The notes under the pieces were generated by a model, which saw nothing but the letters and a program-made list of their open reading frames with translations, did not search any database and had not been told where the DNA came from. From positions 1 to 25,271 of IMG/VR virus record IMGVR_UViG_3300025012_000732: a DNA stretch of 25,271 bases; one strand, 5' to 3'. Source of the DNA: a virus. Positions within the stretch are counted from its first letter, which is position 1, and the number at the start of each line of letters is the position of its first letter. Positions 1-21,735 of the stretch are shown here, one piece after another. A program made the position numbers and the translations under genes.

Positions 1-693
1 AGGCGTGTTTGTCGCTCCACCCGCACCGAGAGAGGCCGTGTAGAAATCGTCAAGCTTTGCCGTGATCGTGTCGGTGCTATTGCCGAGCCACGCGTAAAAA
101 CCCGTCGAAAGGTCGTAGAGTGTATCAGACACAAGACCTAAAGAGTCCCGCGTCCCCGCCGCCCGGTACCGCCACGCCGACGCTGAGAATGGACTCAGGT
201 TCCAGATACGGATAGATATGGTGTCCCCCCGCGCCCACTGCGAAGCTCCACCAGGCAGGTAGAGGGTGGAAATGATCGTTCGACCCGACCCTGTTTGACG
301 ATGAAAGCGTAGAGCGTTCGATCCGGTAGGAGCATACATCGCCCTGAAATTGTACCCGTTATTTCCAGAGCCATACGCCTTGCCCGGCATGGCGTTTATC
401 AAGACCGGATCGGTGCCCGCCGTTCCGGTGGATAGGGAGTCCCATTTGATACGAAGTTCGGTATTCGACAGCATGAGCGAATCCCACGCCACCATGCCGA
501 GTCCAGCGAATGACGGGTTGGACGATTTCGCCGCGCCACTTGAGGCCGTTAGGCCGTTGGTAATGCCGGTAATTGCCACCCATTTCTTTTGACCGGCGAC
601 TGCCCCGGTATAGGCGAAGTCATCCCGGACTTGGGCGATAAGGGATGCGGAGATGAACAGGACCGAAGCGGCCATTGTGAGTAGGCATTTCAT
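1..693 (-). CDS. Exported, possibly jelly-roll virion/tail protein (partial)
   Basis: The reading frame runs without a stop from the ATG at 693 to the window edge, so the C-terminus is missing; 231 codons are visible. It begins with a basic n-region, a hydrophobic core and a signal-peptidase-like end (residues 1-20, MKCLLTMAASVLFISASLIA) followed by Gln. The mature part starts VRDDFAYTGAVAG and is rich in Gly, Ser, Thr, Trp and Asp. A later LDDFYTASLG segment looks like the repeated Asp-Asp-Phe edges of concanavalin/LamG-like beta sandwiches, but that fold is inferred only. An AAAGGGA stretch before the ATG can serve as ribosome binding site. It lies 2 bases after the stop of the fibre-like gene, so the two are probably co-transcribed. 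Role unknown; a surface or receptor-binding function is likely from position. Confidence 0.75.
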   Translation of the reverse strand, partial: MKCLLTMAASVLFISASLIAQVRDDFAYTGAVAGQKKWVAITGITNGLTASSGAAKSSNPSFAGLGMVAWDSLMLSNTELRIKWDSLSTGTAGTDPVLINAMPGKAYGSGNNGYNFRAMYAPTGSNALRFHRQTGSGRTIISTLYLPGGASQWARGDTISIRIWNLSPFSASAWRYRAAGTRDSLGLVSDTLYDLSTGFYAWLGNSTDTITAKLDDFYTASLGAGGATNTP

Positions 694-695
694 TA

Positions 696-1868
696 TTATT
701 CCCTTTTCCGTTTGTAGACCTTAAGAATGGTTTGATCGACTTCTTCTCCGTTTGTCGAAAACTTCATAGAATCTGTGCCGACCTCAATCATGATGATATT
801 GCCGATCGGCGCATAGCCCCCCACAACGACGTGCTGGATGTCGGTGGACCCCGCTTCCGGAATATACACGGTTGTCGATGGGAGTATGCCGGATGGGATG
901 ATGACGCTGAACATTGTCGTCGGACTTTTCGAGGTCTCAAATATCCGCTGTCCCGTTGTCGTTCCGACCTTGAGCGAATCATTCTGGCGGACAAACTCGC
1001 CAAGGGCGGGGGTGTACGACAAATTGGTCATTGTGAAATTGCTGAGACCAACACCGGCGGTGAATGTCTGCCCGGCGGTCCAGGTGTTTGCCGTACCGAA
1101 GAGATTGTAGGCGGTCGGCGTTCCAGATCCAGCGAACCGCGGGAAATATCCATTCGTACCGGAAAGCCCCAGATAATTCGCCCCATTGGAGTAGATCATG
1201 CTCCCAGCCGCCGGCGCAACGCTCGCCCCCGTTCCACCTTGCGTGATCGGGACGATGCCGGAAAAGGATATGATCCCCGCTGGACTGATTGAGAGGGGTG
1301 TTAATGCCGACGATACTAATACCCCGCTTACAGAAGGCAGCTGAATCCCCGCATTCGAGACAGAGGAAGCGTTTGGGATTAAGGAAACGGTGTAGAGGCC
1401 GCCAGATTGACGCATATACACCCCGCCGCCGTCCTGGATGTACACGCCACCGAATTCCGGCTGCGCCCAAACCCCGAGATTTTGCTTGAGGGCGATTTGG
1501 AGTTGGCCGATAATCGTCTGGACGGTGTTGAAGTTCGCCGTATCAAGATCGAGTTGTGAGAGGCCAGTGTATGTCGCGTCCCCGACCACGGTAATACTCC
1601 CCCCCGCACCCGCTCCGGCGGTGAGCCGCTTGCGACCGCCGGAAGTGTCAGCCACCAGAGTTTGCCCCGTTAATAAACCCGCGAGAGAGGCCGAGTCAAT
1701 ATACCATCCCGCGATATAGATGCCCTTCATATTGTAGATGGTATCGACCACGATTGTCCGATAAATGGGATTGCGCCGGTCGCGGGCAGAATATTGACAT
1801 TCGGCTTTCTCCCCTCCGGGCCAGAAAATCGCGCAAACAATCCCGAGAGTCATCAGGGCTTTTTTCAT
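696..1868 (-). CDS. Tail-fibre-like protein with N-terminal signal-like sequence
   Basis: 390 aa from the ATG at 1868. The frame is open further upstream, but that part overlaps the previous gene and reads out of register with it, so MKKALMTLGIV is the better start. Residues 1-25 have Lys-Lys then a hydrophobic stretch ending KAECQ, a weaker signal peptide than in its neighbours. The body is low in charge and rich in Gly, Ser, Thr and Ala, and contains PITQGGTGA, a motif very common in phage tail fibres and other trimeric fibrous virion proteins. The ending is charged (KVYKRKRE). Eight G residues directly follow the TA of the preceding stop codon and sit 6 bases from this ATG. Likely a fibre or spike; a cytoplasmically assembled fibre would not be expected to carry a Sec signal. 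Confidence 0.75.
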   Translation of the reverse strand: MKKALMTLGIVCAIFWPGGEKAECQYSARDRRNPIYRTIVVDTIYNMKGIYIAGWYIDSASLAGLLTGQTLVADTSGGRKRLTAGAGAGGSITVVGDATYTGLSQLDLDTANFNTVQTIIGQLQIALKQNLGVWAQPEFGGVYIQDGGGVYMRQSGGLYTVSLIPNASSVSNAGIQLPSVSGVLVSSALTPLSISPAGIISFSGIVPITQGGTGASVAPAAGSMIYSNGANYLGLSGTNGYFPRFAGSGTPTAYNLFGTANTWTAGQTFTAGVGLSNFTMTNLSYTPALGEFVRQNDSLKVGTTTGQRIFETSKSPTTMFSVIIPSGILPSTTVYIPEAGSTDIQHVVVGGYAPIGNIIMIEVGTDSMKFSTNGEEVDQTILKVYKRKRE

Positions 1869-1874
1869 GGCGTT

Positions 1875-1882
1875 CCCCCCCC
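1875..1882 (-). repeat. Homopolymer G8 tract in ribosome-binding region
   Basis: Eight C on the plus strand (G8 on the coding strand) lie between the TA of the upstream stop codon (the first G completes TAG) and AACGCC-ATG of the fibre-like gene. The tract occupies the Shine-Dalgarno position, so a change in its length would alter the spacing. Confidence 0.8.
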
Positions 1883-2289
1883 TAAGCGTTTGGAATAGCG
1901 TGGTAATACACCGTTTCGCCATCGGTGACGGTCGAGGCCGTGAAACCCGACGCATCGGCCCCGGACACGATCACATTGAATCCGGTATCGGTCCAGGCTA
2001 CGACGGTAAAGCTTCCGGTGATGGGTCCGGTGTCGAAGTTGATCCGCGTTCCGGCGATGTTGCAGACACCAGAACCGCTGCGGATGTTGGACGCGCTCAA
2101 CGGGCTCACCGAGGCTCCGGTGTGGGTGGATTTCTTCAGGTCCGTCTTACCGGCTAAGTTTATTAGGTCGGCGATTTCCTGATACACGCTATTCAATCGT
2201 GCCATCTTTTCGGTATCCGTCAAGGCGTTGAACGTGGTCCCGGCCTCCAAGGCCAGATCGGTATTCAGGATGTTCGAAAGTGAGGGCAT
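1882..2289 (-). CDS. Small virion-associated protein of unknown function
   Basis: 135 aa, no signal peptide. The N-terminal half (residues 1-55, starting MPSLSNILNTDLALEAGTTF) is predicted helical with charged residues; the second half is Gly/Ser/Thr rich and probably beta-structured (SGSGVCNIAGTRINFDTG, then FTVVAWTDTGFNVIVSG). A helical base followed by a beta domain suits a short fibre, adaptor or decoration protein. The ATG at 2289 is preceded by GGAGGACGC, a good ribosome binding site embedded in a G8 tract. It sits between a signal-peptide protein and the fibre-like gene with 13- to 16-base gaps, so it is in the same operon. I recognise no specific family. Confidence 0.75.
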   Translation of the reverse strand: MPSLSNILNTDLALEAGTTFNALTDTEKMARLNSVYQEIADLINLAGKTDLKKSTHTGASVSPLSASNIRSGSGVCNIAGTRINFDTGPITGSFTVVAWTDTGFNVIVSGADASGFTASTVTDGETVYYHAIPNA

Positions 2290-2298
2290 AAGCGTCCT

Positions 2299-2306
2299 CC
2301 CCCCCC
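2299..2306 (-). repeat. Second homopolymer G8 tract in ribosome-binding region
   Basis: Same arrangement as the tract at 1875-1882: TA of the upstream stop codon, then eight G, then A. Here AGGACGCTT follows before the ATG at 2289, so the tract merges with the GGAGG ribosome binding site. Confidence 0.8.
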
Positions 2307-2650
2307 TATCTCAGCGTGAGAATTCGGTAAACGGCCGTTGAACTCGCCGTCTTCGTTCTCAGGTATGAGCGCTGGATTACATAGGGCAGCGTCCTGGTCG
2401 AACTGACCGGCACGGTGAAGTAGGTTCCGGCTACCGTATCGTCTTCGAACGCCACCAAGAGCGGTATTGTGGCTGAGGTATTGGTGATCTCGATATGCTT
2501 GGCGAGGTTCTTTCCGCCGATGGCGACGCTATCCCATGTGACGGTTGCCGTATCGCTAAATTCGCGGGCTTCGAAGATTGAAACGATTTGCGAGTGGGCG
2601 ACACTTGAGAGTCCGCACACCAGGAAGAGGGAGAGAATGAGAGTTTTCAT
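2306..2650 (-). CDS. Small exported protein in virion module
   Basis: 114 aa. Residues 1-20 form a textbook Sec signal peptide (MKTLILSLFLVCGLSSVAHS) with an AxS cleavage end, followed by Gln. The mature 94 residues have repeated short beta-type strands (TATVTWDSVAIGG, IEITNTSATIPLLVAFEDD, YFTVPVSSTRTLPYVIQRS), consistent with one small beta-sandwich. AAGGAATC precedes the ATG at 2650. It lies in line with the capsid and fibre genes and is probably co-expressed with them. Function unknown; it could be a host-surface factor acting in the periplasm or outer membrane rather than a virion part. Confidence 0.75.
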   Translation of the reverse strand: MKTLILSLFLVCGLSSVAHSQIVSIFEAREFSDTATVTWDSVAIGGKNLAKHIEITNTSATIPLLVAFEDDTVAGTYFTVPVSSTRTLPYVIQRSYLRTKTASSTAVYRILTLR

Positions 2651-2670
2651 TGTTGAATCAGATTCCTTAT

Positions 2671-3114
2671 TTAAGTGGACACTTTGCCCGATGCTTCGGC
2701 CCTTTTGCGATCGGCGAGGTTTTCGGCTTCCTTTTTCTTGTTGCGCTCCAACTGGGCCTTGTTCTCGGCCTCCTTCTCCTTCTTCGATTTCTCCTCGGCC
2801 TTCGCGTTGAGCTCGTCGATGAGTTTGAAGACCTTTACCTGGTCATCACCGCTGAGACGGGTGATCTCATTGCCCATGACGCGGTTCACGAAATCACGTT
2901 TCCAGATGTATTTCTTCGGGTCGGCCTCGGTCTTCGGGGCGAGTTCGAAGATATGGGGAGAGGTTAGGAGCTGTGCGTCGGCCTCCTTGTCGGGGAGTTC
3001 ACCATCAGGCGAGAAGACGACGAAAGCAGCGGCTCCCAGGGCTTCGACGGAGCCGATCTGGATGCGATAGGGAAGCTCAATCTTCGATTCCGGTTTGATG
3101 CGTAATGTTTTCAT
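2671..3114 (-). CDS. Hypothetical protein with highly charged coiled-coil tail
   Basis: 147 aa. The first ~90 residues look globular (MKTLRIKPESKIELPYRIQI, then a WKRDFVNRVMGNEITRLSGD segment). Residues ~100-147 are almost entirely Lys, Glu, Ala, Asn and Arg and should form a long helix or coiled coil. There is no signal peptide. AAGGAAGGA lies 12 bases upstream of the ATG at 3114. The position after the capsid genes suggests a virion assembly or connector role, but no family is recognised. Confidence 0.75.
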   Translation of the reverse strand: MKTLRIKPESKIELPYRIQIGSVEALGAAAFVVFSPDGELPDKEADAQLLTSPHIFELAPKTEADPKKYIWKRDFVNRVMGNEITRLSGDDQVKVFKLIDELNAKAEEKSKKEKEAENKAQLERNKKKEAENLADRKRAEASGKVST

Positions 3115-3243
3115 GAGAGTGGCAAGATCCTTCCTTGGAAAGTTTGGTTGATAAAGTCCCCCGGGCGGCCAAAGCGAATAGGGACGTATTCTCTTGCACC
3201 GTCCGGGGTTTAACGTTACATCATCCCCTACAAAAAGAGATGA

Positions 3244-3513
3244 TTAGGTCTGCACCCAGGAACCCGCGATGCCTGAGCCAACGGCCCCGGCCTTGACGTA
3301 GGTGTCTGAGTTGGTCGTATCGACGAGCGTGGAACCGTTCGGCGATTTGGTGAAATCCGTGCTGGGAGCACCGGCGTTCCAGATTTCATGAATTTCACCC
3401 AACCCGTTCTGCGAGATGCGAAGACCCGAAACAGTGACGGGATAGCTAAATGCCGCCACCGGGTCGATCGCCACTTCCCGCGTTACGAGAATGAGGTTAT
3501 TGTAGGTTGCCAT
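3244..3513 (-). CDS. Small putative virion protein
   Basis: 89 aa from the ATG at 3513, chosen over an upstream in-frame ATG because AAAGGAGAT lies 8 bases before it and the upstream part overlaps the preceding gene. The protein starts MATYNNLILVTREVAIDPVA and has mixed beta-type character with no signal peptide or membrane segment. A weak hairpin (8-bp arms, ATCATC-type) directly follows the stop codon but has no U tail. The following 129 bases (3115-3243) hold no gene that I can see. A small head or decoration protein is possible from position only. Confidence 0.7.
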   Translation of the reverse strand: MATYNNLILVTREVAIDPVAAFSYPVTVSGLRISQNGLGEIHEIWNAGAPSTDFTKSPNGSTLVDTTNSDTYVKAGAVGSGIAGSWVQT

Positions 3514-3529
3514 GTTTCGTTGATCTCCT

Positions 3530-4003
3530 TTAGCGTTTGGGAAGTGTGAAAAACTGACGAACTTGCAGCCAGAGCTTGTTCGCACCGGTTAAGGTGTTCC
3601 CCGCTGCGCGGGCTGTGATCTTGACCGCCATGACATCGGACGCGGCGTACACGCTTCGAGGAAGTACGCGAGTCCCAAGTCCGGCGACTTTAACGGTGTC
3701 GTAGACGACATAGGAACTCAGACCGCTTCCCATGAAGTCCACGGCGACAGCAGGCTCCGCTTTAATGGAGTCGCCAGTTGCCGTTGCCCGCCATTCCAGG
3801 CGGACGGAATCGGGACGAACGCCGTTGAGCTGACCGGCATACGTTACCCCGGAATAGACGAGCGGTATATCCGTCACCGTCACCACCTCATCGTTGAGAA
3901 TGGTGTTGTTCGCGGTAACGAGGTAGTCCACCGTCACGATCTGAGCCAACCCAGAGGCAATCAGGGCCAGCGTGAGTGCTGCGAGAAGAAGGATGCGTTT
4001 CAT
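3530..4003 (-). CDS. Exported protein next to the capsid gene
   Basis: 157 aa. Residues 1-20 (MKRILLLAALTLALIASGLA) are a strong Sec signal peptide with the cleavage site GLA followed by Gln. The mature region is beta-rich with several VxVTDIPLVYSGVTY-like strands and ends LQVRQFFTLPKR. GGGAGGACGG precedes the ATG. It lies only 18 bases after the major capsid protein gene, a place where other phages have decoration or head-completion proteins, which makes the signal peptide notable. No lipobox Cys is present. Function not recognised. Confidence 0.8.
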   Translation of the reverse strand: MKRILLLAALTLALIASGLAQIVTVDYLVTANNTILNDEVVTVTDIPLVYSGVTYAGQLNGVRPDSVRLEWRATATGDSIKAEPAVAVDFMGSGLSSYVVYDTVKVAGLGTRVLPRSVYAASDVMAVKITARAAGNTLTGANKLWLQVRQFFTLPKR

Positions 4004-4021: not shown

Positions 4022-5347
4022 TTACGCATAACTCAAGGCGTGCGGTGAATAGGTGACGCCCTCCAGCGACGACGTATTCTCGTAAAAATCGCCAGCCGTA
4101 AGGCCGGTAATCCCGAGAGTGTCATACGTCTCGTTGCGGACGATGGATTTTATCATGTCAATCGCCATCCCCTTGATCGCACCATAATCCTCTTCGTCGT
4201 CAATCAGGTCCATCTCTTCGCCGGTGCCAATCGAGAGCATCGACTGGCCGACGAGGATACAGACGGCCTTCGTGCCGGTGTCAAGGGCGTTGATCGTGTT
4301 GGCGGTGTAAAGACCCTGCGCCCTTTGACCCGCCGTCGGACGTGGGCCGTATTCCACCAACCCGGAGGTGATGAGAGGATCGGTCGTGTTGGTGTAGGCG
4401 TTCCAGAGCATCGAATCGACGTAGATCACCGCGTTGTCGATGATCGCCACCGCTCCGTTCCCTAAGGGGTGCTTCGACATCTCGGATAAGGTCAGGCTCT
4501 GCGCGTAGGCTATGAATTCCGCCGACGTGCGCAGCTGCAACCATGCCGAATCCTTCATCCAGATGGGATAGAATTCGTATCCGTCTTTGGTGACGAGGGG
4601 TTTGATGTTGGAGCGGTTCGCCTCGAAAACCAAGTTCCGGACGAATGCAACCGACATCTTATCCTCGGCGGTGTTGGTGAGACCGTCGATGGCTGTGGCG
4701 CAGGAGTTTTCATACCCGACAGTTCCGGGACGGCCTGCGGTATAGGCCACGCGGCCCGTACCAGCGACGATCATGTTGGGATGGGAGACGATTGCCTGAC
4801 CCAACCCACCATTGACCACGGGGGCCACCACTTCACGCGAATAGCCGCCCAAGATTGCCGAGAGGATATTCGACGGCAGGAAATTCCTGTACCAGTCCAT
4901 GAGCGAATTGGAGGCGCTCATTACGTCCTGCTTCGCCCACTGTTTGATCTTCTGACGGTTCATGCCGACCGGAGGGGCGACAGCCTTCCTCCATCGGTTG
5001 ATCTTGACGGCCCTGAAGGTGAAGGCCATCGGTTCCTCCGAGCCCCGGAGTTGGGAGTCGCCGAATTTCGGCAACCCGGTGAGGATCGAGCGGACCGGGA
5101 TGACCATGTCCGTTCGGCCCTGCTGAATGAAGGCATCGACGGCTTCGATTGGAGCGCTGGTCCATTTCGGGCCCATCGGTCCTGTCGATACCACTTCCTC
5201 GGCGGTGTTCTGACCGCCGGCGGCGAGGTAGTTTGGCGCGATCCAGCGGGCAAACCTGGAACCCTTGAACTGCTGACGCCGCATTTTCTCGGCGAGCAGC
5301 GTCCTGAGTTCCGCGTTGCTGGAAAGATTTAAGATTGTTGCTGGCAT
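4022..5347 (-). CDS. Major capsid protein, N4-gp56/DUF4043-like
   Basis: 441 aa. The region around residues 81-140 (MVIPVRSILTGLPKFGDSQL, then GSEEPMAFTFRAVKINRWRK and VGMNRQKIKQWAKQD) follows the pattern of the N4-gp56/DUF4043 capsid family: a hydrophobic strand, a loop with Gly-Asp-x-x-Leu-x-Gly-x-Glu-Glu, a strand, then a Met-x-x-Gln helix. The remaining part has the expected mix of strands and a long central Ala/Gly-rich domain. The length is normal for an HK97-fold capsid protein. AAGGAGAT stands 9 bases before the ATG at 5347. It follows the candidate scaffold gene and is probably the most highly expressed gene here. The family match is from remembered pattern, not a search. Confidence 0.85.
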   Translation of the reverse strand: MPATILNLSSNAELRTLLAEKMRRQQFKGSRFARWIAPNYLAAGGQNTAEEVVSTGPMGPKWTSAPIEAVDAFIQQGRTDMVIPVRSILTGLPKFGDSQLRGSEEPMAFTFRAVKINRWRKAVAPPVGMNRQKIKQWAKQDVMSASNSLMDWYRNFLPSNILSAILGGYSREVVAPVVNGGLGQAIVSHPNMIVAGTGRVAYTAGRPGTVGYENSCATAIDGLTNTAEDKMSVAFVRNLVFEANRSNIKPLVTKDGYEFYPIWMKDSAWLQLRTSAEFIAYAQSLTLSEMSKHPLGNGAVAIIDNAVIYVDSMLWNAYTNTTDPLITSGLVEYGPRPTAGQRAQGLYTANTINALDTGTKAVCILVGQSMLSIGTGEEMDLIDDEEDYGAIKGMAIDMIKSIVRNETYDTLGITGLTAGDFYENTSSLEGVTYSPHALSYA

Positions 5348-5382: not shown

Positions 5383-6549
5383 CTATTCGGAAGCGAGTTC
5401 TTTGAGTCGTTGATCGAGTGCGTCGTCACCAGCTCCCCGTACGTTCTCGGGGTTGGTGAAGTCGATTTTGCCGGTCACGCCTGAGCGGTTCTTGGACCCC
5501 GGTAATGCGGCTTGGGAGACCGTATCGGTCGTCTTATCACGCATCTTCCTCAGATCTTCGGTGTGCTCGGTGCGGCCTTTGGCCCTCGCGCTTTCGGTTG
5601 CGCGATTCATCACCTCTTCGTGACGATTCAACCAGAAATAACGACGGACCGCCTCTTTGATTGGATAGTCGATCCCGAATTTCTGCTCACTGACCGCCTT
5701 ATCTTGCAAGGCAGCGTCCACGACAGCCTTCATCTCGTCCTCGGTGTAGCCCAATCCCATTTCAGAGTTGATCTTCGTGAGGTAGGCCGTCCCTTCGGTC
5801 TTGGCCTCATCGGTAGCGGCGTACACACCCGCCAAGGCTTCGGCGTAACCGGTGGCTTCCTTTTCGAGTTTGGTCTGGACTTCGGAAATGGCGCTCTTCA
5901 AGGCCATGTAGAGCCCGTAATTCGCCTGCTTGAGGTCGGTGAGGGTGTCTTTGGTGATCGGGAATTCCACCCCGGCGTCTGCCAGGTCGCGGATCACGGG
6001 ATGCTCGGAGAGTTCCATGTTGAACCGCTCCTTGGTCTCGTTCTTGATCCGCTGGATTTCCTCCGCGCTGAGGGTGGTTACGTCGCCTGTGGGTTTCACG
6101 GCTGCGGGAGTGAGCTTCGCCTTATCGGCTTCGGCCTTGCGCGTGAGTTCGGCGTCGAGCTTCTTGTAGACTTCTTCGACGCCCTTCCAATCACCGGAGG
6201 CTTTTGCCGCTTCGATCTTCTCGGTTAAGAGAAATTCGGGCAGGTTCAGCCGTTTGGTGATCTCCGCTACCCCTTTGGTGAGGTCGTCCGGGGTTTTGTA
6301 TTTCCCGGCCAAGAGTAACGCTTGATCGCCTTCAGTACCGGTTGTGGTCGCGTCGTCCTTCTTTCCAGCGGGTTCCCCGATCGGGGCCGCTCCCCGGGTT
6401 CCCTTCTGCACATTCGGGTCCGCCCCGGTAGAGGCAGGAGTACCCGTGCTATCAGCAGGGCCAGGGGAAGAGATCGCATCACTATCCGGTATATCGGTGA
6501 TCCTCTTGTCGAGGTCTTCGGTCTTGAGGTCCTTTAATTCATCCGGCAT
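5383..6549 (-). CDS. Candidate capsid scaffolding protein
   Basis: 388 aa, very acidic at the N-terminus (MPDELKDLKTEDLDKRITD), with a disordered Pro/Ser/Gly/Thr-rich stretch at ~25-70 and mostly long charged helices after that. Size, composition and place between portal and major capsid protein are typical of scaffolding proteins in P22- and N4-like gene orders. No protease motif is visible, so maturation by an internal protease is not suggested. AAGGA lies 8 bases before the ATG at 6549. An intrinsic terminator is found between the preceding gene and this one. The assignment rests on position and composition. Confidence 0.65.
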   Translation of the reverse strand: MPDELKDLKTEDLDKRITDIPDSDAISSPGPADSTGTPASTGADPNVQKGTRGAAPIGEPAGKKDDATTTGTEGDQALLLAGKYKTPDDLTKGVAEITKRLNLPEFLLTEKIEAAKASGDWKGVEEVYKKLDAELTRKAEADKAKLTPAAVKPTGDVTTLSAEEIQRIKNETKERFNMELSEHPVIRDLADAGVEFPITKDTLTDLKQANYGLYMALKSAISEVQTKLEKEATGYAEALAGVYAATDEAKTEGTAYLTKINSEMGLGYTEDEMKAVVDAALQDKAVSEQKFGIDYPIKEAVRRYFWLNRHEEVMNRATESARAKGRTEHTEDLRKMRDKTTDTVSQAALPGSKNRSGVTGKIDFTNPENVRGAGDDALDQRLKELASE

Positions 6550-6673: not shown

Positions 6674-6967
6674 TCAATCCTCATCCTTCATCTCCTTGAG
6701 TTTCCCGTCAAGTTCCTCGTCGGGCATATCCTTTGGGGCGTCGGATATTTTCTTGATGGAGCCGGAGGCGATCTGCAATTCGCAGTTGTAGCGACCCTTT
6801 GTGTATTGGTCTTCGCTCACGCCGACCACTTTCCCGGTGATGATATATTTTACCTTGTCGCCAAGCGAGAGTCCCTTGATCCCCTCCACGCTGTCGGAGT
6901 TGATGTGGGTGGTCGGCGTGGGTGTCTTATCTTTCGACGTCACCGGGCCCTGTTCAGCTTTTCCCAT
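6674..6967 (-). CDS. Small hypothetical protein downstream of portal
   Basis: 97 aa. The central part (residues 33-70, GDKVKYIITGKVVGVSEDQY onward) has the strand pattern of a small beta-barrel, and the C-terminus is very acidic (DAPKDMPDEELDGKLKEMKD). The start overlaps the portal stop by 14 bases, and GGAG lies 6 bases before the ATG at 6967. The terminator at 6585-6619 lies 55 bases beyond its stop. It may be an accessory head protein; I do not recognise a family. Confidence 0.7.
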   Translation of the reverse strand: MGKAEQGPVTSKDKTPTPTTHINSDSVEGIKGLSLGDKVKYIITGKVVGVSEDQYTKGRYNCELQIASGSIKKISDAPKDMPDEELDGKLKEMKDED

Positions 6968-8918
6968 TCGAGGCTCCGTTCTTTTTCGCTGGTTCGGAGA
7001 GTTGCTTCACCTGCCTGGCTGCTCCGAGTTGGTCTGAGACTGCCTGCTGTTGCGCCTGCATCTGCTCGGCATTGACCGCCACGCCAATGCGCTGCTCTGC
7101 GAACGCGGCCAATTTCTTCGCTTCCGGTACGTCCATGTTGCGGAGGATCGCAGCTCCAACGGCCATGCCCATAACCGGATCAGCGCTGAAAAGTTCCGAT
7201 ACACCGGCCAAAGTTGCAACGGCCTCCTTGCGGGCGGTTTCACCAATCGCGGCAATGTCCGGCTTGAAATCGTACTCGCCTTTGGTAAGGTCGTTCATCA
7301 CACCTTCAAGGGTCTCTCGATTCACCGCCAACCAGTACGGATCGCCTTCGTCATTAAAGAGCCTGAGTGTTCGCTCGAACGTCATAAACTTTTGGATCGA
7401 GGCGAAAGTGTAATCAAAAACGTTACACATGAACTCCTGCATATTGTCGAAGAAATGGGCCGTCATCACCTCCGAGGCGGCCCTGCGGGATTCGAATAAT
7501 ACGCCGGACTCCTTTGATGATTCCTGATAGCCCCGGGCGTTGGGGCTGATTGCCGATATATAATCACCCAAGTTCTTCCCCTCTTCGGCCAGGACCTGAA
7601 GGATGTTGAAGACACTCATATCGGGCTTGCGGGGTTCGGGTTTGAACCCACCTCTGATATTCCAGAACCGGATGACGCCACGGGCCCGGGATCTCCATGA
7701 CGACATATCATCCGGGTCGATCGAACCCTTCGGCGCGTCGATGGGGGGATTCAAGGTGTCGCCGACCAGTTGAACGCTACTCATCATCCGCTGGTTATAC
7801 ATATCGACCGGGGCAATGAGCGAATCGAGGACGGACTGCGTTTTCAACACGTCGGGGTGGAAGTTGTAACACAACACCCATTTGATCGAATAGCCGTGGC
7901 CCTGGACCATGTAGGGCTGCTCTAAAATGAACTTGTCCTTGATGAGAGCCGGGCAGGCTACCGTGATATACTGCAATTCGGTGGAGTCGTCCTGTACAAC
8001 CGCACCGGGGATTTTCTTCATCTCACTGACGATGTACGCTTCGTCCAAGTGTTTCTCTTCGGGGATTTCAATAACGTCGCGGGTCACTGGCGAGTAGACG
8101 TACTTTTTCGTGACGGTGCGGCGGTCGTGCCATTCGATGACGCGGTAGAGGCCCTCTTTCGCATCGACGAAGGGGGTTAGAAGTCCACTCTTACGACGGG
8201 CTTCCCTTTCGACGTTGAAGGGTGTTCCTACCGGGGTTCCGATGCGGTCAAACCACGCACGGGCTTTCTGGAAGACTGAAACGGTGGCGTTCTCGTAGAG
8301 TGAGGCTTCTTGCCTGATCTCTGAGATGAGTTCGGGGGTGAGATAGCGTTTATAGACCTGAATGATCTCGTCGGCGCTCATCATCGGAGAATAGGACACG
8401 AAACGGCAATCATCCTGATCGAGCTTTTTACAGTCAGGGTCGAACATCACCAGGAAGGGATCAATGCGCCCTGTGTACCACTTCCCCTCGGGATCTCTGC
8501 GGATGTCCCAATAATTCGAGACATATCCTACCTTGCCAACGGCAGCGTCAATACCGGCTCCGGCCATTTCGTTATAGCCGTCACAGTTGCCCATCGCCCA
8601 ATCGTTCACCAGTGAGGTGATAAACTCCGAATCGTCCACGTCTTCACTTCGCACGGGGACGGCCTTGATCCTTGTGGTGTCCTTTTTGAGTTTACCTGCA
8701 AGATAGAGAATCGTCTGATTCGGGAGTTGGAATTCGAAGATAGGACGGCCTTCGGCCTTGAGTTCTTTGCGTACATCAGGGTCGAGCATATCGCCGATGG
8801 CGTAATTGTAGGATTTCACCTGAGCGTCGCGGAAATCGGACCAGCGGTTTTGAAGAGCGGTCCAGGCCGATGAGAGTTGCGCCACCCTGGAATCGGTATG
8901 GAGTTGGGGGTCGGTCAT
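6954..8918 (-). CDS. Portal protein, P22-like
   Basis: 654 aa. Starts MTDPQLHTDSRVAQLSSAWT with a helical N-terminus containing the WSDFRDAQVKSYNYAIGDML motif, then RPIFEFQLPNQTILYLAGKL, which matches the opening of P22-type portals (Arg-Pro-x-x-x-x-N, then a helix). Later there are a receptor-like GRIDPFLVMFDP segment, long helices around 370-520 and an Ala/Gln-rich C-terminus as in portal barrels. It forms the dodecameric vertex through which terminase pumps DNA. P22 portal is about 725 aa; this one is slightly shorter. The start overlaps the stop of the 63-aa gene by 4 bases. The genes run in the order terS, terL, small gene, portal. Confidence 0.85.
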   Translation of the reverse strand: MTDPQLHTDSRVAQLSSAWTALQNRWSDFRDAQVKSYNYAIGDMLDPDVRKELKAEGRPIFEFQLPNQTILYLAGKLKKDTTRIKAVPVRSEDVDDSEFITSLVNDWAMGNCDGYNEMAGAGIDAAVGKVGYVSNYWDIRRDPEGKWYTGRIDPFLVMFDPDCKKLDQDDCRFVSYSPMMSADEIIQVYKRYLTPELISEIRQEASLYENATVSVFQKARAWFDRIGTPVGTPFNVEREARRKSGLLTPFVDAKEGLYRVIEWHDRRTVTKKYVYSPVTRDVIEIPEEKHLDEAYIVSEMKKIPGAVVQDDSTELQYITVACPALIKDKFILEQPYMVQGHGYSIKWVLCYNFHPDVLKTQSVLDSLIAPVDMYNQRMMSSVQLVGDTLNPPIDAPKGSIDPDDMSSWRSRARGVIRFWNIRGGFKPEPRKPDMSVFNILQVLAEEGKNLGDYISAISPNARGYQESSKESGVLFESRRAASEVMTAHFFDNMQEFMCNVFDYTFASIQKFMTFERTLRLFNDEGDPYWLAVNRETLEGVMNDLTKGEYDFKPDIAAIGETARKEAVATLAGVSELFSADPVMGMAVGAAILRNMDVPEAKKLAAFAEQRIGVAVNAEQMQAQQQAVSDQLGAARQVKQLSEPAKKNGASNGKS

Positions 8919-9115: not shown

Positions 9116-10630
9116 CTATCCCCTTCCCACCTTGAACTCCGGGACTTCCGGGTTCTGCTTTTTCTTCAAGCGGTCCATCCATGTCCCCGGTTCAGGCATG
9201 GGTTTTGAATACCCGCGGGCGGCCATGATGCTATAACGGTCAGCGTCGAGGGCGTGCGCAACCACGTCGGGATTCTTGCCCTTGCCTAAGATGTCTTCCG
9301 GGTTCTTTTCGTCTGCGACACTGGCCGCGATTTCATCGAGGAAGGGTTCGTTGAATGTGTCGAAGTAGAAATACCGCCCCTGCTCCATCAAGTTTTTCAT
9401 CGCCCACCAGCCGTTTACCCTGTCGGTCACGGCTTTTTCAAGGGAGAGTCCCTCCTTCTCGAACTGATCGCGGAATGTTTCTTCACTTGATTCGACGGCG
9501 AAGCGGTCTTTACGCGCCCATGCGTCCGTACCCGATACAATGACGTTCGGCATTCGCCCGGCGGTCCACTCGAAATTCTTGAGACGTTCGGCGATGGATT
9601 TGGCGTGGTCTCGGGAACTTTTTTCACGCTCGTAGTAGGTGAAGAGTTTGTAATGGTTTCCCTCGAAATCGACGGTGCGAAGCGTGAAGGCGCAGGGCGA
9701 TGACCAGCCCGGATCGAGGCCGCCGATCAGGGGCCACTCCTCCGGGATTGGGAAGGGTTTCACTTTCGATTTTGCAGGATCGAACATCTTGAAGAAATCA
9801 CCGCCGAAGGCGTACCAGTCACCTTCCAGGAGAGCTTTTTCGACCGTCTCCCCCTGTTGTTTGATCTTGCTGCGATAATCGTCTTTGAGGACGAATTTAT
9901 TATCCTCAAGATTTCCGGGAATGAATATCCTTGTTTGGGAATACTTGGTCTTGTAGGGAACCTCCAAGCCTCTCGGATTGCGCTCGGGGTCGTCAGGATC
10001 AGCGAGAAAGGAATACCGGCGATACGGTTCTGAATTCTGGATGAACCGCTTGCGGACCCAGACCAAACCCGTACCCATCGGCATCGCCGTTGAGCGGATG
10101 CGAGGATTCAAGCCCAGGACTTTCGAGCGTGCGCGGGTGAAGAGGTATATATACTGGCCGAAGGTGAACTGCTGGAGCTCATCAAAGCCGACGAACTGAT
10201 ACTCCGCGCCGTCATGGTTGAACTTGTCCTTCTCCTGGTCCATGTGGCAGAAGAATATTACTGCGCCGGACCGGGTAGTGGAGATTGTATCGCCTTTACG
10301 GGTGTAGGTTGGGAAGATAAAGGACGGGCCGGGATCGCCTTTGCGCTGCGCGACGTACTCAGCTTTGAAGGTTGAGGAACAGTACATCTTGTACGCTTCG
10401 TCGATAAGTTTTTGGAGATGGTTGGACTGGCGACGGAAGATCACGGCACGGTAGTCGGGAACTTCGATGGCGTTACGCCCGAGCGAGGTGAAGCGGTATT
10501 GTGTGCCCAGGGCGTCATAGACCAGCCACCAAGATTTACCGGGCCCGGCCTTGCCACCAAAAAGGACTTCATCTTCGGGGCGGTCTGAACAGATTTGCTG
10601 TCCGCCTGCTTGCGGTCCGATTTCGACCAT
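9116..10630 (-). CDS. terL: Terminase large subunit
   Basis: 504 aa from the ATG at 10630. It packages DNA: an N-terminal ATPase drives translocation into the procapsid and a C-terminal RNase-H-like nuclease cuts the concatemer. Walker A is GGKAGPGKS at residues 25-33, Walker B is FVGFDEL at 146-152, and the nuclease domain starts at LIGGLDPGW (Asp306), with further Asp in SGTDAW and HALDADRYS. The frame stays open upstream through an ATG at 10663 (17-base overlap with terS) and beyond, but that stretch (MSLLISLILVLM) is hydrophobic and unlike terminase N-termini, while MVEIGPQAGGQQ fits. Neither start has a strong ribosome binding site, so translation may be coupled to terS. Confidence 0.9.
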   Translation of the reverse strand: MVEIGPQAGGQQICSDRPEDEVLFGGKAGPGKSWWLVYDALGTQYRFTSLGRNAIEVPDYRAVIFRRQSNHLQKLIDEAYKMYCSSTFKAEYVAQRKGDPGPSFIFPTYTRKGDTISTTRSGAVIFFCHMDQEKDKFNHDGAEYQFVGFDELQQFTFGQYIYLFTRARSKVLGLNPRIRSTAMPMGTGLVWVRKRFIQNSEPYRRYSFLADPDDPERNPRGLEVPYKTKYSQTRIFIPGNLEDNKFVLKDDYRSKIKQQGETVEKALLEGDWYAFGGDFFKMFDPAKSKVKPFPIPEEWPLIGGLDPGWSSPCAFTLRTVDFEGNHYKLFTYYEREKSSRDHAKSIAERLKNFEWTAGRMPNVIVSGTDAWARKDRFAVESSEETFRDQFEKEGLSLEKAVTDRVNGWWAMKNLMEQGRYFYFDTFNEPFLDEIAASVADEKNPEDILGKGKNPDVVAHALDADRYSIMAARGYSKPMPEPGTWMDRLKKKQNPEVPEFKVGRG

Positions 10631-10646
10631 GAGGACCAGTATGAGG

Positions 10647-11225
10647 CTAATGAGGAGCGACATCGGAGCCCGAGGTGTCGAACTTTGACGCCCGCAGCAC
10701 AACCATTCTGTCGAGGTCTTCGCCGTTGAATGAAACACTCACGTCGGCGCCGACGATCTTGTGATAATGGGCGAGTTTGTCGAAGGCCAGCGTGCGGATT
10801 TTATCGGAGAGGGAGACCGACACCCTTTCCTTTTTGCCCGGGTTCTCCACTGAAAAGGTAAGCGCGATTAAAAATTCGGGGTCGATCAGTGAGGGGTCTT
10901 TGAAATGTAGGCCACCCTTTTTGTCGATCGTGAAAAAGTCGGTCAGCTTTGCCTCGGTTAATGTGTTGAGTTTCTTCAACATGCGCTCGGCCTTGAGGTC
11001 GAGTTTTGTTTCACGTTCTCGCTTGCGGGCTTCGATGAATTCAGAGACCTTGACTTTCTTGATGGTCCGTGAGGCCCATTGGGCGGCAGAATCGACCGTG
11101 CCGCCACAGCCTGCGCGGATCGCGGCCTGAGTCTGGTTCAAATCCACCAGATATTCAAGGCAAAACATTTTTTCGAGAGGAGTGAGGCCATGAACGCGCG
11201 TGTTATATCGCCTCGGTTTTTTCAT
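10647..11225 (-). CDS. terS: Terminase small subunit (Terminase_2-like)
   Basis: 192 aa. The opening LTPLEKMFCLEYLVDLNQTQ then AAIRAGCGG and IKKVKVSEFIEAR is the helix-turn-helix pattern of the Terminase_2 (PF03592) family, which recognises the packaging site and hands DNA to TerL. The middle (AERMLKKLNTLTEAKLTDFF) and the following segment are also usual for the family. A GTG at 11228 directly precedes the ATG at 11225, so either may be used; no ribosome binding site is visible before them. A strong terminator ends only 13 bases upstream, an odd leader for a late gene. Confidence 0.88.
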   Translation of the reverse strand: MKKPRRYNTRVHGLTPLEKMFCLEYLVDLNQTQAAIRAGCGGTVDSAAQWASRTIKKVKVSEFIEARKRERETKLDLKAERMLKKLNTLTEAKLTDFFTIDKKGGLHFKDPSLIDPEFLIALTFSVENPGKKERVSVSLSDKIRTLAFDKLAHYHKIVGADVSVSFNGEDLDRMVVLRASKFDTSGSDVAPH

Positions 11226-11240
11226 CACGATTTACACGAT

Positions 11241-13606: not shown

Positions 13607-14164
13607 CTACCCGCCCTCCTTCTTGTTTTTCATCTGTGTAGCGTACAATTTCAAGCCGTACCGAATTATTTTCTGTTTTATAGCGGCCCCTGCGGCGGCC
13701 TGTGCGGCCCATGCGGCGGCCTGTGCGTCCTGTGCGGCCCGTGCGGCGGCCTGTGCGGCGGCCCCTGCGGCGGCCTGTGCGGCCCATGCGGCCCATGCGG
13801 CGGTCCCTGCGGCGGCCTGTGCGGCCCGTGCGGCGGCCTGTGCGGCCCGTGCGGCGGCCTTTCTTTTGACGCCTCGCGCTTTCAGGTATGCCTTCACCGC
13901 CTGAATCGCCTTACGGGGCCTATTATCTTCTGGATATTTCTTCTCGTAGATATTCAACACCGCCTCTGCCGCGTGGATCGCGTACCAGACGTTATTATCT
14001 TTTGTGAGCAACCGGACGATCAGCCAATTTGCCCAATCGAAATGATCGTTTTCCAGGAGAAGGAGAGTCAACTTCCTCGGATCGGTTTCCTTCCGCTCTA
14101 AAAACCACTCAACGCCCTCTGAGCAAGCGTCTCTTGCCTCAAGCCACATCTTTGTGATCTCCAT
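13607..14164 (-). CDS. Helical protein with long alanine-heptad repeat
   Basis: 185 aa. The N-terminal ~100 residues form a helical domain with GVEWFLERKETDPRKLTL, FDWANWLIVRLL and YAIHAAEAVLNIYEKKYPED, followed by NRPRKAIQAVKAYL. This layout resembles proteins often annotated as putative immunity protein (Imm5-like), but that is from memory. Residues ~103-161 are nearly all Ala with Arg, Gln, Gly and Trp at heptad spacing (for example AAARAAQ repeated), as in an alanine-zipper coiled coil. The end is basic (YGLKLYATQMKNKKEGG). GGAGGAATAGC precedes the ATG. The repeat lies in a GCGGCC-rich DNA minisatellite with all frames open, and the frame chosen is supported by the unique ends. Confidence 0.75.
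   Translation of the reverse strand: MEITKMWLEARDACSEGVEWFLERKETDPRKLTLLLLENDHFDWANWLIVRLLTKDNNVWYAIHAAEAVLNIYEKKYPEDNRPRKAIQAVKAYLKARGVKRKAAARAAQAAARAAQAAAGTAAWAAWAAQAAAGAAAQAAARAAQDAQAAAWAAQAAAGAAIKQKIIRYGLKLYATQMKNKKEGG
13683..13860 (-). repeat. GCGGCC minisatellite coding for alanine heptads
   Basis: Imperfect tandem copies of GCGGCCTGTGCGGCC-like units cover about 178 bases on the plus strand. On the minus strand they read AAARAAQ, AAAGTAAW, AAAGAAAQ and related units, mostly of 7 codons (21 bases), with a few shorter or longer. The near-identity of units indicates recent slippage or unequal crossover. Confidence 0.85.
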
Positions 14165-14846: not shown

Positions 14847-15268
14847 CTCTCGGTCTCTTTGTGTTCTATGTGGGGGGCGGGGAATCCTTTGTAAAAAGCA
14901 TAAGCCGCGTCATAGTCTGGTTCGGGTAGGAACATCAACACTTTGTGATTTGCCCAATCGTAAAACAATGGCGTTCCCCATCCTTCTGTTTGACCAGGAA
15001 TGTCATCGGGCATATAATGACAAGCGTCGATTCGATGCCCCATATCCGGCTCTTCGTCCATAAAGGTCAGGAAGGGGCCGGTCGTAGTTGGCTTGTATTC
15101 TGGGTACTTCCTCCACCCCCCATTGTTCTCCGAGGCGAGGCAGGAGGCGCGGAGTTTGACTATCTCGTCGGCAAGATATTGTCGGGCAAGAACGTCCCCG
15201 TGCTCGTTCTGCATCGAACGAATCCGCTCAACCTCTCTCCGCACCCTCTCCGGTAGTTTGTCTGTCAT
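14843..15268 (-). CDS. Hypothetical protein (DUF551-like pattern)
   Basis: 141 aa from the ATG at 15268, which overlaps the stop of the upstream gene (ATGA); the longer frame to 15361 is discarded. The N-terminus is a charged helix (MTDKLPERVRREVERIRSMQ). The C-terminal half has GGWRKYPEYKPTTTGPFLTF, then HRIDACHYMPDDIPG and FYDWANHKVLMFLPEP. The order W-x-x-x-P-x-x-x-P, a strand, then AxY/ACHY and a final PEP resembles DUF551-like phage proteins (small beta fold, unknown function). The match is from memory. Confidence 0.6.
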   Translation of the reverse strand: MTDKLPERVRREVERIRSMQNEHGDVLARQYLADEIVKLRASCLASENNGGWRKYPEYKPTTTGPFLTFMDEEPDMGHRIDACHYMPDDIPGQTEGWGTPLFYDWANHKVLMFLPEPDYDAAYAFYKGFPAPHIEHKETER

Positions 15269-15750
15269 TTGGCACTCCACCTGAGAAAATCCATGAAGCC
15301 CTTGAGTGTGGCCGGTCGAGGATATTTCTGTCCCCGAACTCTCGTAAATATGTCGCCGCAATTATCGCAGACATATACCTTGGCGCCCGGTATCCATGCC
15401 ACACTGCCGGAATACAGATCGTCATTCCCAACGGCGAGAGAGTTCCCCGGCCATGATGCCGTATCACCGCAAGACGGGCAAAGCGGAATGGCGGATGAGT
15501 CCAAGCGGCATGAGTCTACCCAATCGTCCCAACGCGAGAAAAAATCTTCCCACATCATTCCGTGTTTGAAGATGAAGGGGGTCGCCTGCTTGATTATCAT
15601 ATTATCCCATTTATAAACCACCCTCACCCTATAATCGGGTGGCGGCTCAACGGCGATACTATCCTGTCCCCTTGCCACCTGTGCGCCGAGTAAGAGCAGC
15701 ATACAGAGACCAAAGCCTATCCCCTCCATGCGTGAGTTATACCGGATCAT
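15265..15750 (-). CDS. Putative exported zinc-ribbon protein
   Basis: 161 aa. Residues 1-28 (MIRYNSRMEGIGFGLCMLLL then LGAQVARG) look like a Sec signal peptide and are followed by Gln at the expected cleavage site. The mature part carries two Cys pairs: PLCPSCGDTA near residue 92 and VCDNCGDIFTR near residue 130, forming a probable four-Cys zinc ribbon. The start at 15750 overlaps the stop of the HNH gene (ATGA); a second ATG at 15729 also starts before the hydrophobic core. A secreted zinc ribbon from a phage accessory region is unusual. Role unknown. Confidence 0.65.
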   Translation of the reverse strand: MIRYNSRMEGIGFGLCMLLLLGAQVARGQDSIAVEPPPDYRVRVVYKWDNMIIKQATPFIFKHGMMWEDFFSRWDDWVDSCRLDSSAIPLCPSCGDTASWPGNSLAVGNDDLYSGSVAWIPGAKVYVCDNCGDIFTRVRGQKYPRPATLKGFMDFLRWSAK

Positions 15751-20473: not shown

Positions 20474-20691
20474 TCCTTACGGTGTTGGAGCGGACGGTTG
20501 AAGCCGTCGGTAAAGAACATGGCCCAGGAGGTGTGAGGCGATTAATACTGGCGTTGGCGGATGCGCGGACGAATAACTGGACACTCGCCCAAGAGTTCGG
20601 CATTACAATCTTCTCGGTCGCTCTTATGCGACGTGAACGTGATTCACTCGGCGTGGCACTTAAAATTCTATCTTCGCGCTCAAGAAAGTAA
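20470..20691 (+). CDS. Second helix-turn-helix regulator
   Basis: 73 aa, starting MILTVLERTVEAVGKEHGPG; NWTLAQEFGITIFSVALMRR is a helix-turn-helix-like segment. ATG 20470 overlaps the stop of the first regulator (ATGA). Its last 32 bases overlap the end of the minus-strand membrane-protein gene at 20660. Probably co-expressed with the first regulator. Confidence 0.65.
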   Translation: MILTVLERTVEAVGKEHGPGGVRRLILALADARTNNWTLAQEFGITIFSVALMRRERDSLGVALKILSSRSRK

Positions 20692-21283
20692 TAGGTTTGG
20701 TGCCGGCGGTCATCAACCGTCCGATACCGATACTCTTAAACCCGACGGTCCCCCCTCCTCCGTTCAAAGCGAGATGGCCCACAATCCAGAAGTCTTTTTC
20801 AGGAGCAGGGACGAATCTGGTATTTGTGATTGTTGTCAAGGCGGAGGATTCGGCTTGTGCCGGTATCCAGTCCCATGCGAAGCGTCTTGTTGCCGGATCA
20901 GCCGTAACGTCCACCTTGTTGCCGTACTCTTTAATGGTCGCTCTCATTACTCTGAGGGCCGAAGAAAGAGAAAGATTCTTCATTCCTACCAAGGTTTTAA
21001 GAGAATCAATCACTCCTAAAAGCCCCGGGATTGTTCCGGGATGCCGAGTTATTTCAGGTTCTGATTGGGTTGCCACCGGGCCATTATCAGGCCAGTTGGC
21101 GTCTGCTTCGCCATGCACCGGAGGCTTCCAGGGGATCAGGGGACCGTGCGTAGTGTCGCTTACGATGGGTTGGCTCAAGATCTCTACCCTCATGGACTCC
21201 CGGCCATAACGGTAACTCATGTAATGGGAGAAGGCGAGGATGATGACGATAACACCGGCGATGGTCCAGGATTTAGTGTTCAT
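20660..21283 (-). CDS. Membrane-anchored protein next to endolysin (spanin-like?)
   Basis: 207 aa. Residues ~7-22 (TIAGVIVIILAFSHYM) form a single N-terminal membrane helix followed by basic residues and a long soluble part with Pro-rich stretches (PLIPWKPPVHGEADANWPDN), a helical part (LLGVIDSLKTLVGMKNLSLS) and a C-terminal strand-rich part (GTVGFKSIGIGRLMTAGTKP). Its ATG overlaps the stop of the M15 peptidase gene (ATGA), so lysis partnership is plausible: an Rz-like inner-membrane spanin has one N-terminal membrane helix and a long periplasmic part, though coiled-coil content here is low. The end overlaps the plus-strand regulator by 32 bases. Confidence 0.6.
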   Translation of the reverse strand: MNTKSWTIAGVIVIILAFSHYMSYRYGRESMRVEILSQPIVSDTTHGPLIPWKPPVHGEADANWPDNGPVATQSEPEITRHPGTIPGLLGVIDSLKTLVGMKNLSLSSALRVMRATIKEYGNKVDVTADPATRRFAWDWIPAQAESSALTTITNTRFVPAPEKDFWIVGHLALNGGGGTVGFKSIGIGRLMTAGTKPITFLSAKIEF

Positions 21284-21735
21284 TGGCGTAGTCCTACATG
21301 AAGATGCGCATTAGGTGTCAATATGGATTCGGGGTAGATTTGCCAGATGTCGCCGAAATTCATTACGAGACTCATCCAGACGATGGAGAGGAATACTGCG
21401 GCCTTCTGTTGGGATACATCGTTCAGGCGAATGTCGATCGCGTGGCCCTCCCCCGCCCCGTTTTCAAGGTAGTGCCTGGACCGGACGACGTGGACTCTCG
21501 GGGGCTTGGGATCGGTCGAGTGCCCTTCGTGGCCTGATGTAATAACCATCCCGTCTTTATCCTCCGGGAATGTTCCGGCCCAGAGAAGAGAGAGTAGGGT
21601 AATCGCCTCTTTCAAGGTGGGATGCAACTTGTCGCTTTCAACTTCCGGTTTCTCGGCCCAGAGGGCAATGGTTTGGTTCAGGATTTCACCTAAAATAATA
21701 GCGGCGCCCGTTTCGCGGGGATTTGGTCGGGGCAA
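21280..21735 (-). CDS. M15-like peptidoglycan peptidase (putative endolysin)
   Basis: 151 aa from TTG 21735 with AAAGGGAA just before it; no other start gives a better fit. The family signature MVITSGHEGHS (63-73), SRHYL (86-90), GHAIDIR (97-103) and HLHVG (144-148) is that of M15-type zinc peptidases that cut cell-wall stem peptides; candidate zinc ligands are His88, Asp101 and His144/146. Compared with the usual SxHYxGxAxDIR order there is a six-residue insertion (ENGAGE) between HYL and GHAIDIR. No signal peptide, so export would need a holin. It is upstream of the spanin-like gene in the same direction, which fits a lysis unit. Confidence 0.75.
   Translation of the reverse strand: MPRPNPRETGAAIILGEILNQTIALWAEKPEVESDKLHPTLKEAITLLSLLWAGTFPEDKDGMVITSGHEGHSTDPKPPRVHVVRSRHYLENGAGEGHAIDIRLNDVSQQKAAVFLSIVWMSLVMNFGDIWQIYPESILTPNAHLHVGLRQ

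What the first reader, a model, noticed from the sequence alone, without database searches (positions are those of the whole stretch)
1..4003. Sec-type signal peptides with Gln at +1 on several genes of the virion module
Genes at 1-693, 2306-2650 and 3530-4003 have textbook signal peptides; 696-1868 has a weaker one, and all have Gln right after the likely cleavage site. Virion proteins assemble in the cytoplasm, so export is unexpected in the middle of a capsid/fibre operon. The +1 Gln matches the Bacteroidetes Q-rule for signal peptidase I substrates. Either the phage exports a set of surface-acting proteins during infection (receptor masking, release, biofilm binding) or these virion parts are routed through the membrane. 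The exported gene in the accessory region (15265-15750) follows the same rule.
Basis: partly seen in the sequence, partly recalled or inferred. Interest (0 to 1): 0.65.

Follow-up and report, generated by a model that had tools for sequence, protein, structure and literature searches.

The report
Phage tail-fibre genes with export signals
A virus of bacteria carries, inside the gene cluster that builds its particle, several fibre-like and enzyme-like proteins tagged for export out of the host cytoplasm in the style of Bacteroidetes-type hosts; relatives keep the same tags on the same genes, so the signals are real, but whether the exported proteins end up on the virus particle or act outside the cell is not known.

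Summary
The four minus-strand genes 3530-4003, 2306-2650, 696-1868 and 1-693 begin with Sec-type signal peptides followed by Gln at +1; 696-1868 is the weakest. A 99%-identical, near-complete relative (G003, 42.7 kb) completes the truncated gene 1-693 as a 1,449-aa exported GH18 glycoside-hydrolase/TIG protein. It also has a further signalled gene, a 1,019-aa fibre-type protein in the tail-fibre slot. A 55-65%-identical phage (G004) has the same gene order: the same genes carry signals (atypical in the 696-1868 ortholog) and the interleaved genes do not. Two more distant phages (G007; G015, with a different capsid family) carry Gln+1 signals in equivalent slots. Other relatives (e.g. G005) have none, and G005 has a single-piece unsignalled fibre in the same slot. 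In G003, G004 and G015 a small unsignalled anchor-like protein is followed by the signalled fibre. Shuffled controls give signal-plus-Gln in about 0.15% of proteins. Export through host Sec/signal peptidase I is therefore well supported. Whether the mature proteins dock on virions at lysis or act at the cell surface is undecided. Q-rule exported phage genes have a published precedent (Porphyromonas phages); their conserved place in the virion operon, fibres included, is the new part.

The parts
3530..4003 (-). 157-aa exported beta-rich protein directly after the capsid gene; signal peptide = codons 4003-3944, then Gln
   Evidence: G004 ortholog 58% identical with a different but equally hydrophobic signal and conserved Gln+1; G007 homolog 28%; AlphaFold: signal helix plus beta strands, pLDDT 63
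3244..3513 (-). about 89-aa gene without signal peptide, interleaved; start set at the ATG of MATYNN
   Evidence: G004 and G007 counterparts also lack a signal
2671..3114 (-). 147-aa gene without signal peptide, interleaved
   Evidence: counterparts in G004 and G007 lack a signal
2306..2650 (-). 114-aa exported protein; signal = codons 2650-2591, then Gln
   Evidence: G004 ortholog 55% with signal SSA|QIH; no phage hit
1882..2289 (-). 135-aa protein without signal, directly upstream of the signalled fibre 696-1868; proposed fibre anchor (inference)
   Evidence: 55% identical, also unsignalled, in G004
696..1868 (-). 390-aa tail-fibre-like protein (GGTG-type sequence); weak signal = codons 1868-1797, Cys at -1, Gln at +1
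   Evidence: G004: N-terminal 78 aa 56% identical including ARDRRNPxYxTIxVDT, C-terminus diverged
1..693 (-). first 231 aa of a 1,449-aa exported GH18/TIG protein cut by the window edge; signal = codons 693-634, then Gln
   Evidence: Full gene in G003; GH18 E=1.6e-12, TIG 2.9e-7, CoaZ repeat 1.2e-23; GH18 with TAFG|QYT in the same slot of G004
4022..5347 (-). major capsid protein (phrog_334), anchors the operon; no signal
6954..8918 (-). P22-type portal
   Evidence: PF16510 3.5e-55
15265..15750 (-). 161-aa accessory protein with signal ...VARG|QDS and CxxC pairs
   Evidence: present in G003

Best explanation
The phage makes, with its late virion proteins, a set of appendage-type proteins (small beta-rich proteins, two tail-fibre-type proteins and a GH18 glycoside hydrolase) as Sec pre-proteins. 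Host Sec exports them, signal peptidase I cuts before Gln, and the Gln is probably cyclised to pyroglutamate by a host with the Q-rule. The mature proteins therefore lie outside the inner membrane while heads and tails form in the cytoplasm. Most likely mechanism from there (inference): the fibres meet the virions when holin opens the inner membrane and dock on the small unsignalled anchor proteins encoded just upstream, while the GH18 enzyme trims envelope or matrix glycans. Shown here: signals, their conservation, gene order, enzyme family. Inferred: export, cyclisation, docking, substrate. Export alone I put at about 0.85; the confidence below is for the whole chain including docking.
For: Conserved signals with Gln+1 despite diverged signal sequence; genes selectively signalled or unsignalled in the same order in G003 and G004; Gln+1 signals in comparable slots of G007 and of G015, whose capsid is phrog_1328; shuffle control. 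Fibre reading: the 1,019-aa protein lies in the tail-fibre slot after the hub (phrog_3287) and an anchor-like gene; the anchor-like proteins of G003 and G004 are homologous (3e-13) and G015's resembles them near the C-terminus (about 1e-4) and matches a tail-fibre family (4.5e-4); the same slot holds a single unsignalled fibre in G005 starting MGRLQNI, against RLQNI at the start of the G003 anchor. The G007 exported protein shares a domain with the unsignalled C-terminus of PPF1_31 near baseplate genes. The pre-adaptor slot of G009 has an unsignalled pectate-lyase-like protein (7.9e-4, below cut-off). I found no other obvious receptor-binding candidate in G003.
Against: No host is known; no virion or secretome data. 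None of 28 MS-identified virion proteins of phi14:2 and phi18:1 was flagged with a cleavable signal; in the Cellulophaga phages looked at, the Q-rule genes are not marked as virion genes. Structure models are weak and show only a generic beta fold. Anchor function is inferred from position and short similarity. Signal prediction used a home-made score.
Confidence: 0.45

Rival explanations
1. The proteins are exported but never become part of the virion. They act at the cell surface or outside during late infection: fibre-like proteins mask receptors on the cell and on debris, and the GH18 enzyme loosens matrix or envelope glycans to free progeny.
For: Same export evidence as above. In Cellulophaga phages, Q-rule genes are not marked as virion genes. 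Lambda Lom, a signalled outer-membrane protein, sits between tail-spike and tail-fibre genes (described in PMC12309495). Porphyromonas phages carry Q-rule genes of unknown function. The 1,449-aa protein has surface-protein-type repeats.
Against: It leaves the phage without an identified receptor-binding protein, and the signalled fibres occupy the tail-fibre slot next to anchor-like genes.
Confidence: 0.4
2. The hydrophobic N-termini are not used for export; they are uncleaved membrane or assembly helices of cytoplasmic virion proteins.
For: Virions of tailed phages are built in the cytoplasm; the 696-1868 signal is atypical; some distant relatives have a hydrophobic extension on the capsid protein itself (L039, L040).
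Against: Conserved small-x-small|Gln pattern with positively charged n-regions, consistent Gln+1, absence in relatives such as G005, hydrophobic character conserved rather than sequence.
Confidence: 0.1
3. Chance or wrong gene starts.
Against: Shuffle rate 0.15% per protein, Shine-Dalgarno-like sites at most signal starts, conservation in a phage with 55-65% identical core proteins and recurrence in a second capsid family.
Confidence: 0.03

Closest known systems
Q-rule signal-peptide genes of Porphyromonas gingivalis phages (Nixviridae), PMC10367356
   Same: Phage genes with Sec signals whose cleavage exposes Gln, matching the host phylum rule
   Different: Five genes of unknown function in that report; here they include fibres and a GH18 enzyme conserved inside the virion operon
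Bacteroidetes Q-rule (signal peptidase I / glutaminyl cyclase), PMC5837995 and PMC10653852
   Same: Gln at +1 after a Sec signal; also high in Ignavibacterium album (77%)
   Different: Described for bacterial proteins; the words phage and virus do not occur in PMC5837995
Lambda Lom (described in PMC12309495)
   Same: Signalled exported protein encoded among tail-spike and tail-fibre genes
   Different: Outer-membrane barrel, single gene, not a fibre or glycosidase
Unsignalled podovirus tail fibre (e.g. the 1,047-aa protein of G005)
   Same: Slot after the hub, GIGTTSP-type repeats
   Different: In G003, G004 and G015 the anchor-like part and the fibre are separate genes and only the fibre is signalled

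Membership tests
Sec/SPI substrate following the Bacteroidetes Q-rule | positive n-region, hydrophobic core, small residue at -3/-1 | tested here: met
   canonical for 3 of 4 operon genes; 696-1868 atypical
Sec/SPI substrate following the Bacteroidetes Q-rule | Gln at +1 | tested here: met
   4 of 4 in the finding, 15265-15750, the 1,019-aa fibre, and the signalled genes of G004, G007, G015
Sec/SPI substrate following the Bacteroidetes Q-rule | actual cleavage and pyroglutamate | not testable with these tools
   needs mass spectrometry
Sec/SPI substrate following the Bacteroidetes Q-rule | host belongs to a Q-rule lineage | tested here: inconclusive
   two genome-contig scans with capsid and portal alignments found no host
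Tailed-phage virion tail fibre | gene in the tail-fibre slot of a virion operon, fibre-type repeats | tested here: met
   1,019-aa protein of G003; phrog_16122 virion structural protein 1.4e-10 in the repeats
Tailed-phage virion tail fibre | protein present in the particle | not testable with these tools
   no proteomics
Glycosyl hydrolase family 18 | Pfam score above curated cut-off | tested here: met
   PF00704 48.1 bits against 29.6; G004 protein 53.7 bits
Glycosyl hydrolase family 18 | catalytic DxxDxDxE motif | tested here: inconclusive
   read by eye: DGITLDIE in G003 and DFFEFDFE in G004 keep the terminal DxE but not the middle D
Type IX secretion cargo | C-terminal secretion domain | tested here: not met
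   no such Pfam hit in the 1,449-aa or 1,019-aa proteins

The most novel reading that the evidence does not exclude
A tailed phage splits its fibres from their anchors and routes the fibres through the host Sec pathway, so that the particle is finished only when the inner membrane opens at lysis: a tailed virion with periplasmically matured, pyroglutamate-capped appendages.
Probability: 0.35. Interest if true: 0.85.

Novelty: new variant of a known kind. Interest (0 to 1): 0.6.

Why it matters
If the fibres are exported and then joined to virions, tailed-phage assembly has an extracytoplasmic step not described in the papers I found, with N-terminal pyroglutamate as a simple mass-spectrometric marker. 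If they act only outside, these phages secrete a coordinated late set of adhesin-like and glycan-cleaving proteins. Gln+1 signals may also point to the host lineage of orphan phages.

Tried and rejected
Protein searches of 50,697 phage records with the capsid, GH18 protein and 2306-2650 gave nothing. Host search with capsid and portal alignments in genome contigs found nothing. PHROG/Pfam/NCBIfam found no usable family for 3530-4003, 2306-2650 or 696-1868; the few hits are weak, and the NCBIfam ones (GvpM, ArsN1) far below cut-off. Fold search of 3530-4003 gave only generic jelly-roll or lectin-like hits, the named ones below TM 0.6; the 2306-2650 model was too poor to search. GH18 as the main endolysin: set aside, since 21280-21735 reads like an M15-type endolysin beside a spanin-like gene (by eye; no Pfam hit). 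Lipoprotein reading of 696-1868: no good lipobox in the window; in G004 a GSSC site keeps it open. Homology between the 135-aa and 126-aa anchor-like proteins: not found. A scan with the G007 protein 10450-11013 found only itself.

Full report
What is in the sequence. The late genes lie on the minus strand of the window: small terminase (10647-11228), large terminase (9116-10738), P22-type portal (6954-8918), scaffold-like gene (5383-6549, by position), capsid (4022-5347) and then the genes of the finding. 3530-4003, 2306-2650 and 1-693 have standard signal peptides, 696-1868 a weaker one; all put Gln at +1. The three genes between them (3244-3513, 2671-3114, 1882-2289) have none. 15265-15750 also fits. 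The window is a virus record.

Completing the picture. IMG/VR holds a 99% relative, G003 (42,670 b). Window ends map onto both ends of that contig, as expected for a circular or circularly permuted genome, so it is probably near-complete. In G003 gene 1-693 is a 1,449-aa protein with GH18 and TIG domains and surface-protein-type repeats. A general scan of G003 found one further signalled gene in the late region, a 1,019-aa fibre-type protein at 33.2-36.3 kb...LVSGWALA|QSP. Its start probably overlaps the end of the preceding 126-aa gene (TTG or CTG start).

Conservation. Portal searches gave relatives at 55%, about 35-39% and 22-26% identity. G004 (47 kb; portal 55%, capsid 65%) has the same gene order: after the capsid, signal / none / none / signal / none / signal (atypical) / signal (GH18), then a 155-aa gene and the adaptor, and further on the signalled 1,540-aa fibre. 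The two small signalled proteins are 55-58% identical, with signals that differ in sequence but not in hydrophobicity. In the fibre 696-1868 the N-terminal 78 residues are conserved and the rest is not. G007 (portal 39%) has two Gln+1 signal genes, first and fourth after its capsid. The remaining relatives of the closer group, such as G005 and G009, show no signal+Gln genes in the virion module as far as covered; several are fragments. In the portal tree G007 groups with these unsignalled phages (98/97), so the signalled phages are not one clade there and gains or losses are needed.

An independent case. A search with the 1,019/1,540-aa fibre alignment found G015 (20.8 kb), whose capsid matches another family (phrog_1328, 1.1e-6, rather than phrog_334). 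It has a signalled 149-aa gene (LAEA|QFS) just before an adaptor-position gene, and after its hub a 218-aa unsignalled protein overlapping the start of a signalled 708-aa fibre (GPAFS|QTR), followed by a second signalled fibre (TCNA|QEV) whose C-terminal part is 66% identical over 300 aligned positions to the G003 fibre.

Anchor and fibre. In G003, G004 and G015 an unsignalled 126-218-aa protein precedes the signalled fibre; G003 and G004 versions are homologous (3e-13) and G015's resembles them towards the C-terminus (about 1e-4). In G005 the same slot has one 1,047-aa unsignalled fibre beginning MGRLQNI, and the G003 small protein also begins with RLQNI after two residues; this is short and only suggestive. 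I read the small proteins as tail anchors; this is inference. The 135-aa gene 1882-2289 stands in the same relation to 696-1868. In G007 the second signalled protein shares a domain (43% over 84 aligned positions) with the C-terminus of Rhizobium phage PPF1_31, unsignalled and near baseplate genes. These point to appendage-type proteins, not to random cargo.

Chance. A strict signal+Gln filter gives 5/48 genes in G003, 3/44 in G004, 0/55 in G005; N-terminal shuffles give 0.15% per protein.

Controls. In Cellulophaga phages whose records mark MS-identified virion proteins, none of 19 in phi14:2 and 9 in phi18:1 was flagged with a cleavable signal; Q-rule genes such as phi14:2 gp001, phi38:1 gp052 and phi13:2 gp003/046/095/123 are not marked as virion proteins. 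So Gln+1 export genes occur in such phages, but placing them in the virion operon is not seen there. This is the main argument for caution.

Literature. The Q-rule is established for Bacteroidetes, with high values also in Ignavibacterium album (PMC5837995). Porphyromonas phages carry five Q-rule genes of unknown function (PMC10367356). Searches for tailed-phage structural proteins exported by Sec turned up no report that I recognised; the library is open-access only and I read few of the hits. That P22 tailspikes can join heads late in vitro is from my own knowledge and makes docking at lysis plausible.

Verdict. Signals are real and conserved; export is likely (about 0.85). Docking on virions (about 0.45) and purely extracellular action (about 0.4) are close. 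Structure prediction did not help.

Noticed in passing
L039 13555-14934 and L040 10133-11590: Capsid proteins of two distant relatives carry an N-terminal hydrophobic extension ending near VVGG, absent in L038; similar in kind to the signal peptides on capsid proteins mentioned for Porphyromonas phages.
   Followed up: partly
L039 11743-12216: A Gln+1 signal-peptide gene (GFISA|QTG) between portal and scaffold in a phage with 26% portal identity.
   Followed up: no
window 13607-14164: Protein with a long AAQAAARAAQ-type low-complexity stretch, DNA highly repetitive; possibly an immunity-protein-like family.
   Followed up: no
window 20660-21735: Probable lysis cassette: M15-like endolysin (SRHYLENGAGEGHAIDI...HLHV, by eye) and a single-TM spanin-like gene.
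   Followed up: partly
L057, 526-aa ORF on the minus strand (G009): Unsignalled pectate-lyase-like protein in the slot before the adaptor, where the window's phage has the signalled GH18 protein.
   Followed up: partly
window 15265-15750: Signalled accessory protein has two CxxC pairs (zinc-ribbon-like or disulfide-forming), odd for an exported protein.
   Followed up: no
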